A stretch of DNA of 50,107 bases, from NCBI GenBank assembly GCA_024958795.1, contig JANXHP010000021.1, positions 1-50,107 of the forward strand. Direction: 5' to 3'. This stretch comes from Candidatus Poseidoniaceae archaeon. Its GTDB lineage: Archaea > Thermoplasmatota > Poseidoniia > Poseidoniales > Poseidoniaceae. The notes beneath the pieces were generated by a model. That model had not been told where the DNA came from, ran no database searches, and saw only the letters and a program-made list of their open reading frames with translations. The position numbers and the translations under genes are program-made. Below are positions 9,964 through 14,008 of this stretch, piece after piece (the stretch's first letter is position 1; every line of letters begins with the position of its first letter).

Positions 9964-9972
9964 CTTTATATG
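9964..9972 (+). promoter_or_regulatory. TATA-like box for the E1/JAMM operon
   Basis: CTTTATATG is centred about 26 bases before the ATG at 9994. It gives the three-gene operon its own promoter, probably leaderless, separate from the upstream glycosyltransferase gene. Confidence 0.5.
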
Positions 9973-9993: not shown

Positions 9994-10632
9994 ATGAAGA
10001 AAACTGTGGATAGCAAAACGCTACTTATTGTCGGCGCTGGTGGAATAGGTTCTACTCTTGTTGATGTATTGACCCCTGCACTAAGGAGAATAGGAATCAA
10101 TTGTGAAATAGTGATTATGGATGGAGACTTAGTTGAAGCAACTAATCTTGGCCATCAAAGGTTTACCAGCGAAGACATTGGTCTATCAAAGGTCGAAGCT
10201 TTAGCTCAACGCCATATTGCTGACAGTGAATCCAGTGTAACTGTCAGTGCAATAACTGAAAACTTACGTAATTTAGAGCAACTAAAAGGTGCTGATTTAG
10301 TCATAGTTTGCGTAGATAGACCTGAACCAAGACGTTTAGTTCACCAATTGCAAGTTCCTTGGACAGATTTGCGTTGTGGTGGCGATGGCCACCTTGTAAT
10401 GACTAGTGAAAGTCAAACTGCATTAGTTGAAGCCATGACTCCAGATCATCCTGCAAAATCATGTCAGCATGAAGGGGCTCTTGAATCTGGAAACCTAGAA
10501 TTTGGGTTCCTCAATGCTGCTGCTTTCGGCGCCCAGTGGGCCCTTCAACAATTGCGTGGAAAACCTACACCGATACAGAGTATGGCAAGCATTACCTATG
10601 GACAAATGCATTTTCCGGTGGTGAGTGAATGA
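9994..10632 (+). CDS. E1-like (ThiF/MoeB/UbaA superfamily) adenylating enzyme
   Basis: This 212-residue enzyme has the E1 Rossmann nucleotide-binding fold. It shows VGAGGIGS at 13-20, the acidic DGDLVEATNLGHQRF segment at 43-57 (Asp for ribose; Asn and Arg for the triphosphate), the IGLSK lysine at 66, and the VCVDRPEPRRL segment at 105-115 that follows the ATP site. Cys128 and Cys157 are candidate thioester or persulfide residues. No paired CxxC zinc motifs are seen, and at 212 residues it is shorter than MoeB/UbaA-type enzymes (around 245-270). E1 enzymes adenylate the C-terminal Gly of ubiquitin-like or sulfur-carrier proteins. The gene's last four bases overlap the start of the JAMM protease gene, so the two products are probably made together. 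The partner modifier is not in the window. Confidence 0.82.
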   Translation: MKKTVDSKTLLIVGAGGIGSTLVDVLTPALRRIGINCEIVIMDGDLVEATNLGHQRFTSEDIGLSKVEALAQRHIADSESSVTVSAITENLRNLEQLKGADLVIVCVDRPEPRRLVHQLQVPWTDLRCGGDGHLVMTSESQTALVEAMTPDHPAKSCQHEGALESGNLEFGFLNAAAFGAQWALQQLRGKPTPIQSMASITYGQMHFPVVSE

Positions 10633-11180
10633 TTTTTATTCCAAATATTGAAGAATTGTGTGAAGATCAAAGAGCATGGGAATACATCTGTAATCTTGCC
10701 GAAAACAAGAAGGTTGATGCTCCAATTCTACTAACATTCCAAAGCAATAGTGCTTCGGCTGGAAGATGGGATGCAGTTTACGCAATATCTCTGTTAGCAG
10801 GGCTTGAAACATCGGTTCTTATCGATGCTGATGACATGGTATTCATTGACTGGGGTACATCTGGAAGAGTACCACTAAAACCTCCAGTCGGTGCAAGAAT
10901 GCCCTTCAAAACCTGGGTTCACACCCATCCTGGGTTTGCTGCATATTGGAGCGCTACAGATACCAATAGTTTAGCGATAGGAAGCGCAATTCTTCGTCAA
11001 GCAATCGTACTTGGCGCACCGGGTCCAAAAACCGCTATCAACCTCGCTTTTGATGACGATTATGAATGCCAGAATACAATTAATGCTAACGGACCTTTGT
11101 CCAATTGGAGTGATGAACCTGTCACACCATGGGATGAATGGTATCAGCAAAGAGAAGAAATCAGTGAGGTGATTGTATGA
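10629..11180 (+). CDS. JAMM/MPN-domain metalloprotease, deconjugase-like
   Basis: This 183-residue protein carries the JAMM zinc motif as H98-T-H100-P then seven residues to Ser108 and Asp111 (WVHTHPGFAAYWSATD), matching HxHx7SxxD of MPN+ isopeptidases. The catalytic Glu expected some 40 residues earlier could be Glu60 in LAGLETSVLID; this is an inference. JAMM proteins cut ubiquitin-like modifiers from targets or process their precursors. The overlapping E1-like gene upstream makes that function more likely here. The start overlaps the E1 stop (ATGA), and its own stop overlaps the next gene's ATG the same way. The N-terminal 50 residues and the acidic C-terminus are not recognisable. Confidence 0.78.
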   Translation: MIFIPNIEELCEDQRAWEYICNLAENKKVDAPILLTFQSNSASAGRWDAVYAISLLAGLETSVLIDADDMVFIDWGTSGRVPLKPPVGARMPFKTWVHTHPGFAAYWSATDTNSLAIGSAILRQAIVLGAPGPKTAINLAFDDDYECQNTINANGPLSNWSDEPVTPWDEWYQQREEISEVIV

Positions 11181-11413
11181 GTGTTAGGAATCCTAAAGAT
11201 GATGAAGAAGAACTGAAAGCGCGGTTAGCAATAGCTTTAGGTAAGGGTAAGACCATCAAGGAATTTATTCAATTCATTAGCGATGAAGAAATTGATGATG
11301 AATTAGTTGAAGCAATTAAGAACAGGCTTAAATTTGCGAGTGAGAGGGATGAAACGATAGATGTTCACGCACTAATCACTGGAATGCTTGCTATTCAAGG
11401 CAAGTGGATTTGA
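11177..11413 (+). CDS. Small helical protein, third gene of the E1/JAMM operon
   Basis: This is a 78-residue charged protein with no family I recognise. It is predicted largely alpha-helical, with acidic N-terminal (KDDEEELKARL) and central (DEEIDDELVEAIKNR) helices and a hydrophobic end, MLAIQGKWI. It does not end in Gly-Gly and does not show a beta-grasp pattern, so it is probably not the modifier itself. It might be a target, an adaptor or an E2 substitute. Its ATG overlaps the JAMM stop by four bases, which strongly suggests it is translated and belongs to the same system. It converges on the fatty-acid oxidation gene with four bases between stops. Confidence 0.72.
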   Translation: MSVRNPKDDEEELKARLAIALGKGKTIKEFIQFISDEEIDDELVEAIKNRLKFASERDETIDVHALITGMLAIQGKWI

Positions 11414-13603: not shown

Positions 13604-14008
13604 ATGCGAGTGGTGAAATTGACATTGGAGGATTTCCCAACAATGGCAATTCTAGATGATTATTTTGAAGAATTATCATCTCCGACAAAGAATGGAAGAG
13701 TTGACATCAATGGTGATTGTATGGAGGATTCTCAAATTTTTCCCGGTGAAATCGTTGTATTCTTACATGGAGGAAGGCTTGTGAAAATGGCAAGAGCATC
13801 TTCCTCAGTAATCGCCTCAGATAACGACCTTCCACGCCATTTTACAATAGATGCTGAATCCATTCGTATTCCAAGAAGAATGTTACGAATATCTGAATTC
13901 CAAGAAATACTCTTCAAAGTCGCTGGCCTTGCTACAAATCTAGCGAGTAAGAACTGGAACCATCTACAAGATTCTGATGTTTTGATTTCAATAATTGACA
14001 GATTATAA
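13604..14008 (+). CDS. Uncharacterised 134-residue protein
   Basis: I do not recognise this family. The protein is soluble, with a mixed pattern. The segment INGDCMEDSQIFPGEIVVF (about 35-53) weakly resembles the GDSM...GD core of S24/LexA-type peptidases, with Cys in place of the catalytic Ser. The lysine spacing after it is too short for that family, so the likeness may be accidental. The C-terminal 40 residues look helical. It stands alone between the divergent fatty-acid oxidation gene and the convergent glycosyltransferase gene. A TTTATG run about 28 bases upstream could be its promoter. Confidence 0.6.
   Translation: MRVVKLTLEDFPTMAILDDYFEELSSPTKNGRVDINGDCMEDSQIFPGEIVVFLHGGRLVKMARASSSVIASDNDLPRHFTIDAESIRIPRRMLRISEFQEILFKVAGLATNLASKNWNHLQDSDVLISIIDRL

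What the first reader, a model, noticed from the sequence alone, without database searches (positions are those of the whole stretch)
9994..11413. Compact E1-like / JAMM / small-protein operon
Three genes overlap by four bases at each junction and share a TATA-like promoter. They encode an E1-type adenylating enzyme of only 212 residues, a JAMM peptidase with intact HxH...SxxD, and a 78-residue helical protein without a Gly-Gly end. E1 plus JAMM is the activating/removing pair of ubiquitin-like modification (compare the haloarchaeal UbaA-SAMP-JAMM system and bacterial Cap2/Cap3-type operons). No modifier and no E2 are encoded next to them. The third protein does not look like a beta-grasp fold and could be a new target, adaptor or E2 substitute. 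Sitting between sugar-transfer genes, it is not in an obvious defence island.
Basis: partly seen in the sequence, partly recalled or inferred. Interest (0 to 1): 0.72.

Follow-up and report, generated by a model that had tools for sequence, protein, structure and literature searches.

The report
Ubiquitin-like tagging machinery in ocean archaea

Summary
The three-gene operon is real and conserved. It belongs to Candidatus Poseidoniales (Marine Group II). All three genes are under purifying selection, and E1-JAMM-P78 order holds across both families of the order; four family-2 loci fuse E1 to JAMM. The missing modifier exists. Relatives encode a Gly-Gly ubiquitin-like protein (Ubl). In the window's genus it is an unlinked gene of 2-3 head-to-tail repeats, each ending (M)PGLVGG, with a short C-terminal tail. 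Elsewhere the Ubl lies directly upstream of E1 or is fused to it. A profile of these domains retrieves ubiquitin first from the whole PDB. Ubl and JAMM co-occur in 146 genomes (p=7e-25), as does a third family with an invariant Cys motif that may be the E2 (p about 1e-24 to 1e-27). In the window's own assembly the Ubl falls in a gap; three E2-candidates are present. One locus type contains Ubl-E2-E1-JAMM-P78 in one run. Viral contigs carry E1, JAMM, Ubl and E2-candidate but no P78. P78 is helical, matches nothing known, and all 87 complete sequences end at the same alignment column; its role is unproven. I found no published description of this system in the library held here.

The parts
9965..9972 (+). 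TATA-box-like promoter element TTTATATG, its start 29 nt upstream of the E1 start codon
   Evidence: conserved in the window and five close relatives (L005, L006, L007, L010, L011) although the flanking bases differ
9994..10632 (+). compact E1-like adenylating enzyme, 212 aa; GAGGIGS loop, DGD, NLGHQ, K66, D108, R113 and invariant Cys157 (SCQ)
   Evidence: Pfam ThiF 1.8e-21; invariant residues in 43 homologues; the fused homologue L043 folds with mean pLDDT 92 and matches UBA5, ThiF, MoeB and MccB
10629..11180 (+). JAMM/MPN+ metalloprotease, 183 aa; E60, H98xH100, S108xxD111
   Evidence: motif invariant in 48 homologues; overlaps the E1 gene by 4 nt; fused to E1 in L043, L047, L050, L051
11177..11413 (+). 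P78, small four-helix protein, 78 aa, no known family
   Evidence: directly follows JAMM in 74 of 87 distinct host JAMM genes; purifying selection; all 87 complete homologues end at the same alignment column; no Pfam, NCBIfam, PHROGs, PDB or BFVD match

Best explanation
The operon encodes the activating enzyme (E1), the deconjugating/processing protease (JAMM) and an accessory helical protein (P78) of a complete ubiquitin-like conjugation system of Candidatus Poseidoniales. Proposed cycle: (1) a Ubl precursor, in this genus an unlinked gene of 2-3 tandem Ubl repeats each ending LVGG with a short tail, is cut after Gly-Gly by JAMM [inferred]. (2) E1 adenylates the Gly-Gly C-terminus and carries it on Cys157 [inferred from the conserved site]. 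(3) The Ubl passes to one of several Cys-motif E2-candidate proteins and then to lysines of targets [inferred, least certain]. (4) JAMM removes the tag [inferred]. (5) P78, made in step with JAMM through an ATGA overlap, is most likely a non-catalytic subunit or adaptor of JAMM/E1 that places a fixed C-terminal helix end in a partner's pocket [inferred, about 50%]. A link to the 20S proteasome and to TFIIB-like transcription factors is suggested by gene neighbourhood only. Shown here: gene order, motifs, co-occurrence, Ubl fusion and adjacency, and similarity of the Ubl to ubiquitin.
For: E1-JAMM-P78 order conserved in both families of the order. Two tandem Gly-Gly Ubls fused to the N-terminus of E1 in L036, L038 and L057. 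Ubl directly upstream of E1 in L050, L058, L317, L327, L330, L333 and others. In the window's genus the Ubl is an unlinked di- or tri-Ubl gene whose last repeat carries F, MC, MASEVC or other tails. Ubl profile A7: ubiquitin and polyubiquitin lead all PDB hits and align through the terminal Gly-Gly; single ubiquitin E about 0.2-0.6, tandem ubiquitin down to 4e-17 by summing repeats. Ubiquitin outscored all genuine decoys and all 300 Gly-Gly-preserving shuffles. Co-occurrence over 146 genomes: JAMM-Ubl 7e-25, JAMM-E2-candidate 1e-24, Ubl-E2-candidate 4e-27. Window genome: Ubl-flanking gene cut at position 3 of contig C69 and the other flank missing, so the locus lies in an assembly gap; three E2-candidates present; 20S proteasome present.
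Against: No biochemistry exists. The Ubl gene was not seen in the window's own assembly. The E2 assignment rests on a motif: HMM scores for real E2s were within the decoys and hhalign was not significant although it put the Cys in register, and no Pfam E2 model matched. The E1 lacks the N-terminal arginine-finger segment of MoeB (from my knowledge of MoeB) and has His where canonical E1s have Arg in NLxRQ. Co-occurrence p-values ignore shared ancestry of the genomes.
Confidence: 0.85

Rival explanations
1. The system is a sulfur-carrier pathway: E1 adenylates the Ubl so that a thiocarboxylate forms for tRNA thiolation or cofactor synthesis, and JAMM only trims the Ubl precursor.
For: The E1 scores best to ThiF and MoeB models in NCBIfam; Cys157 lies where ThiF, MoeB and UbaA have their functional Cys (from knowledge of those enzymes); archaeal SAMPs are known to do both jobs.
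Against: No rhodanese, sulfurtransferase, thiamine or molybdopterin gene lies beside any of the loci read here. The genome has a separate full-length ThiF/MoeB-type E1 (409 aa). Tandem Ubls and a co-occurring Cys-motif family are not typical of sulfur carriers.
Confidence: 0.15
2. P78 itself is the main substrate of E1, a helical peptide modifier activated at its C-terminus in the manner of MccB and MccA, and the Ubl belongs to another E1.
For: All 87 complete P78 sequences end at exactly the same alignment column, whereas E1 and JAMM have 14 and 24 different end columns; MccB is among the closest solved structures.
Against: The Ubl is fused to or adjacent to this E1 in many loci. P78 is missing from viral and mobile-element versions that keep Ubl, E1 and JAMM. 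The last residue of P78 varies (A, V, S, C, I, T). The closest thing to P78 in L060 does not keep the register.
Confidence: 0.08
3. The operon is an antiviral defence system of the CBASS Cap2/Cap3 or Bub kind.
For: E1-JAB pairs of bacteria are mostly defence genes; weak PADLOC E1-E2 profile hits; viruses predicted to infect these archaea carry their own versions.
Against: No cyclase, effector or E1-E2 fusion nearby. In Poseidoniaceae the locus keeps the same chromosomal neighbours (GDP-mannose dehydratase, glycosyltransferases, 3-hydroxyacyl-CoA dehydrogenase, HxlR-type regulator) across genera. Distribution is broad in the order, not sporadic.
Confidence: 0.1

Closest known systems
Bacterial PRTRC / 'type 6d' Ubl-JAB-E1-E2 operons (Iyer, Burroughs and Aravind 2006, PMC1779556)
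   Same: E1 is PRTRC_ThiF-like (TIGR03736 E=1.3e-14, top model for the divergent E1s L043 and L060); the parts list Ubl, JAB, E1, E2-like plus a helical protein is alike
   Different: score far below the family cut-off (54 against 144.75 bits); tandem Ubls; P78 of 78 aa; archaeal chromosomes and viruses rather than plasmids; no PLSDB plasmid match
Haloarchaeal SAMP / UbaA / HvJAMM system
   Same: archaeal Gly-Gly Ubl, E1 and JAMM; SAMP-tagged TBP2 is degraded by proteasomes (PMC4895103), compare the TFIIB-like neighbours here
   Different: UbaA model hit far below its cut-off (36 against 450 bits); SAMPs are single domains; no E2 there; no P78
Caldiarchaeum / Asgard eukaryote-like ubiquitin operons (e.g. 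CsUb-CsRpn11, PMC6043591)
   Same: Ub with a C-terminal tail processed by a JAMM protease; E1 and E2 in one gene cluster
   Different: proteins here are not close homologues; E2-candidates match no Pfam E2 model; no RING protein seen
Eukaryotic polyubiquitin genes
   Same: head-to-tail repeats ending Gly-Gly with one or a few extra C-terminal residues; the Ubl profile ranks ubiquitin first in PDB
   Different: 2-3 repeats; 66-71 residue domains; individual similarity to ubiquitin is weak; likely convergent gene architecture
CBASS Cap2/Cap3
   Same: E1 and JAB pair
   Different: no cyclase target gene, no E1-E2 fusion protein

Membership tests
ThiF/E1-like superfamily | Rossmann-like ThiF domain with GxGGxG loop and conserved Asp/Asn/Lys/Asp of the adenylation site | tested here: met
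ThiF/E1-like superfamily | Arg of the NLxRQ motif | tested here: not met
   His54 in most homologues; Tyr in viral ones
JAMM/MPN+ peptidases | E ... HxH(x7)SxxD zinc site | tested here: met
   E60, H98, H100, S108, D111 invariant in 48 sequences
ubiquitin-like modifiers | C-terminal Gly-Gly, exposed or followed by a removable tail | tested here: met
ubiquitin-like modifiers | beta-grasp fold | tested here: inconclusive
   profile ranks ubiquitin first in PDB, single copies E 0.2-0.6; weak ThiS and SAMP1 hits; no model made
E2 (UBC-fold) enzymes | UBC fold with catalytic Cys | tested here: inconclusive
   [IV]C[IV]x...GD motif, Cys in 98 of 98 matched domains, but no significant profile match
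PRTRC cassette | E1 above the TIGR03736 cut-off | tested here: not met
   54.2 bits against 144.75
PRTRC cassette | ParB-related partner and plasmid location | tested here: not met
   no such neighbour in the loci read; no PLSDB match
SAMP/UbaA system | E1 above the UbaA (NF047750) cut-off | tested here: not met
   36.1 bits against 450
CBASS type II | CD-NTase gene and Cap2 E2-E1 fusion beside Cap3 | tested here: not met
   neighbours listed
Protein-conjugating system | Ubl covalently joined to target lysines | not testable with these tools
   needs mass spectrometry

The most novel reading that the evidence does not exclude
Poseidoniales have an independent, complete ubiquitin-like conjugation and processing system with polyubiquitin-style precursor genes, several divergent E2-type enzymes and an obligate helical subunit (P78), aimed partly at TFIIB-type transcription factors and the proteasome. 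Their viruses carry stripped-down copies (Ubl, E1, JAMM, E2-candidate, no P78) to take over or evade it.
Probability: 0.35. Interest if true: 0.92.

Novelty: new variant of a known kind. Interest (0 to 1): 0.8.

Why it matters
[quoted passage not shown] Full ubiquitin-like cascades in archaea have been reported mainly from Aigarchaeota, Crenarchaeota and Asgards (PMC4327156, PMC5654768, PMC9192718). A separate cascade in a thermoplasmatal lineage, with tandem Ubl genes resembling polyubiquitin and with viral copies, would show that the polyubiquitin gene plan arose outside the eukaryote line or is far older. It also makes two open questions testable: what a prokaryotic Ubl system marks outside defence, and why archaeal viruses encode their own tagging enzymes. 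P78 is a new helical component with no known relative.

Tried and rejected
P78 as a beta-grasp modifier: rejected by the helical model, absence of Gly-Gly and discovery of the real Ubl. P78 relatives: nothing in Pfam, NCBIfam, PHROGs, PADLOC (only chance-level hits), PDB or BFVD; none in 80 viral loci by HMM or in a viral scan with one P78. E2 confirmation by HMM scores and hhalign against two remembered E2 sequences: not significant. PDB profile search with the E2-candidate: no E2. PRTRC homologues in plasmids and E1 homologues in GenBank phages: no match. Profile scan for P78 in viral contigs: alignment too divergent for the tool. Bacterial hits of the genome scan (Acidiferrobacter, Acidimicrobiaceae, Gammaproteobacteria MAGs): rejected as mis-binned because their flanking genes match Poseidoniales loci. 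Pfam scan of single Ubl domains: only chance-level hits, one of them ubiquitin at E=0.099.

Full report
Observation. Upstream, TTTATATG at 9965-9972 is kept in the window and five close relatives while neighbouring bases vary, as expected of an archaeal TATA box close to the start codon. Between close relatives nearly all changes are at third codon positions and dN is about an order of magnitude below dS in each of the three genes, so P78 is a real, selected protein.

What the proteins are. The 212-aa protein is a compact ThiF/E1 core (Pfam PF00899 E=1.8e-21). In 43 homologues G14, G16, G17, D43, D45, N51, K66, D108, R113, H117, C157 and W182 are invariant. C157 sits in an SCQ...G motif where, from knowledge of those enzymes, MoeB, ThiF and UbaA have their functional cysteine. 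Unusual points: the N-terminal arginine-finger segment of MoeB-type enzymes is missing and the NLxRQ arginine is His (Tyr in viral copies). The 183-aa protein is below Pfam's cut-off but has an invariant E60 / H98xH100 / S108xxD111 set in 48 homologues, and its profile retrieves AMSH-type proteases from the PDB. A natural E1-JAMM fusion (L043) folds with mean pLDDT 91.7 and matches UBA5, ThiF, MoeB and MccB. P78 is modelled as four helices with moderate confidence (pLDDT 79) and has no match in any library.

Conservation. The JAMM protein is found in 72 of 146 related genomes and, in a draw of 390 genomes of the phylum, only in the two families of this order. A scan of the GTDB genome collection gives 79 E1 relatives, named as Candidatus Poseidoniales (Poseidoniaceae, Thalassarchaeaceae) apart from generic 'Euryarchaeota' or 'Thermoplasmata' MAG titles and four records with bacterial titles whose flanking genes match Poseidoniales loci and are therefore mis-binned. 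E1 precedes JAMM nearly everywhere; in L043, L047, L050 and L051 they are one ORF. P78 follows JAMM in 74 of 87 distinct host JAMM genes; of the 13 without it, five loci (L220-L224) are cut at or near the JAMM end, and most of the rest are the divergent, mobile-element-like loci. In Poseidoniaceae the operon keeps the same chromosomal neighbours across genera (GDP-mannose dehydratase, glycosyltransferases, 3-hydroxyacyl-CoA dehydrogenase, HxlR-type regulator). It is a stable chromosomal locus, not an island.

The missing modifier. Neighbourhood clustering of relatives and of 80 viral contigs brought out a family of 65-100 aa proteins ending in Gly-Gly plus 0-2 residues (viruses) or a short tail (hosts). 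In L036, L038 and L057 two such domains in tandem, each ending in PGLVGG or PQLIGG, are fused to the N-terminus of the E1. In L050, L058, L317, L323, L327, L330 and L333 a single copy lies just upstream of E1. A genome-by-genome search found the family in 70 of 146 genomes. In the window's genus it is an unlinked gene with two or three head-to-tail repeats, the last followed by F, MC, MASEVC or similar, the layout of a polyubiquitin gene. A profile of 37 domains against all PDB sequences ranks ubiquitin and polyubiquitin first and aligns them through the terminal Gly-Gly; single ubiquitins score E about 0.2-0.6, and tandem constructs reach 4e-17 only because repeats are summed. I call the family a Ubl with good but not final support.

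Is it in the window's genome? No hit in the assembly (87% complete). In the nearest relative (G007) the Ubl lies between a Pro-rich-linker protein and an RFC-like ATPase. In the window's genome the RFC-like gene is cut at base 3 of contig C69 and the other flank is absent from the assembly (the latter an empty search). The Ubl gene therefore most likely lies in an assembly gap. The single-contig genome G056 (2,064,136 bp, the length of CM001443.1, MG-II) holds the E1-JAMM-P78 operon with an E2-candidate following, a di-Ubl gene (about 111.2-111.6 kb) and two further E2-candidates (about 314.6-317.0 and 625.2-626.0 kb).

An E2 candidate. A third family co-occurs: proteins of about 250-800 aa sharing a [IV]C[IV][DHQN]...GD...[ND]D module, with the Cys present in 98 of 98 domains that match the motif. 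It is found in 79 of 146 genomes, including three ORFs in the window's genome (803, 313 and 253 aa). In some loci it lies directly after P78 (L053, L063), between Ubl and E1 (L317), or fused to the Ubl (L056). Co-occurrence across 146 genomes is very strong: JAMM-Ubl p=7e-25, JAMM-E2-candidate 1e-24, Ubl-E2-candidate 4e-27; 62 genomes have all three and 63 none. These p-values ignore shared ancestry. The short segment round the Cys looks like the ICLDIL segment of E2 enzymes and hhalign puts the two cysteines in register, but the score is not significant and no Pfam or PDB profile links them. This step is a hypothesis.

Viruses. 62 of 80 E1-bearing IMG/VR contigs carry the same JAMM near E1, in a conserved block with a TFIIB-like zinc-ribbon protein, the E2-candidate (c4), a chaperonin and a DNA ligase; many also have the Gly-Gly Ubl. 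By gene content these are probably magroviruses, the viruses of Marine Group II; the host is inferred, not shown. None has P78. A different group with sigma-factor and DNA polymerase genes carries Ubl, a desampylase-like JAB (NF041370 E=6.8e-17) and E1. The magrovirus paper I read (PMC10160649) does not mention ubiquitin, ThiF or JAB.

Mechanism. Best supported: JAMM trims the poly-Ubl precursor and removes tags, E1 activates the Ubl Gly-Gly, and a Cys-motif E2-candidate passes it on. Each catalytic step is inferred from conserved residues. P78 is translationally coupled to JAMM and is kept even where E1 and JAMM are fused. All 87 complete sequences end at one alignment column although they differ down to 13-20% identity, while E1 and JAMM C-termini vary (four exceptions are contig edges). 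The closest candidate relative in L060 does not keep this register, and its homology is only marginal. I read this as a structural subunit or adaptor whose C-terminal helix end fits a partner, at about 50%; a direct E1 substrate is possible but unlikely (8%).

Downstream. The window's genome has two 20S proteasome subunit genes, and divergent loci place a proteasome-activating-nucleotidase-like AAA ATPase beside the Ubl genes (L039: PAN model E=4.6e-37; L261: AAA 8.3e-20). TFIIB-type proteins lie beside system genes repeatedly in hosts and viruses (L261 TFIIB E=3.5e-29; zinc ribbons in L134, L211, L215, L260). In Haloferax a TBP is tagged by SAMP2 and degraded by proteasomes (PMC4895103), so tagging of basal transcription factors is a testable idea, no more.

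Known or new. The parts list resembles the bacterial Ubl-JAB-E1-E2 operons of Iyer et al. 2006 (PMC1779556), and the E1 is nearest PRTRC ThiF among their models, but it fails that family's cut-off, is not plasmid-borne and has P78 and tandem Ubls. It also fails the UbaA cut-off. An earlier survey reported only a UCH peptidase and RING proteins from one Marine Group II genome (PMC4327156). Searches of the held library gave no description of this system; the library lacks most subscription papers, so a report elsewhere cannot be excluded. I rate it a new variant of a known kind.

Noticed in passing
L040, L041, L045, L038 (upstream of E2-candidate/Ubl/E1/JAMM): T7-like single-subunit RNA polymerase (PF00940, E down to 5e-47) beside the Ubl system on contigs binned with Poseidoniales, probably mobile elements or viruses.
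   Followed up: partly
L066-L145 (viral contigs): Archaeal-type viral contigs carry E1 and JAMM with a TFIIB-like protein, chaperonin and ligase, and many also the Gly-Gly Ubl and E2-candidate, but no P78.
   Followed up: partly
L080, L084, L088, L098, L103, L120: A second marine phage group with sigma factor and DNA polymerase genes has Ubl (ending GG) - desampylase-like JAB - E1 in a row.
   Followed up: partly
L134, L211, L215, L260, L261, L333: TFIIB-like zinc-ribbon proteins sit next to Ubl-system genes again and again, in hosts and viruses; some lack a recognisable TFIIB core repeat.
   Followed up: partly
L039:1365-2798, L261:3339-4820: Proteasome-activating-nucleotidase-like AAA ATPase beside JAMM, E2-candidate and Ubl genes.
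   Followed up: no
L060/L318: Divergent operon Ubl (ending FG) - JAMM - 74-aa helical protein ending GGV - E2-candidate (HICLDVK) - E1.
   Followed up: no
G000:C115:9456-9542 (L003): A second, unrelated JAB-domain ORF (247 aa) in the window's genome.
   Followed up: no
window 13604-14008: 134-aa ORF without Pfam match next to the convergent 3-hydroxyacyl-CoA dehydrogenase gene.
   Followed up: no
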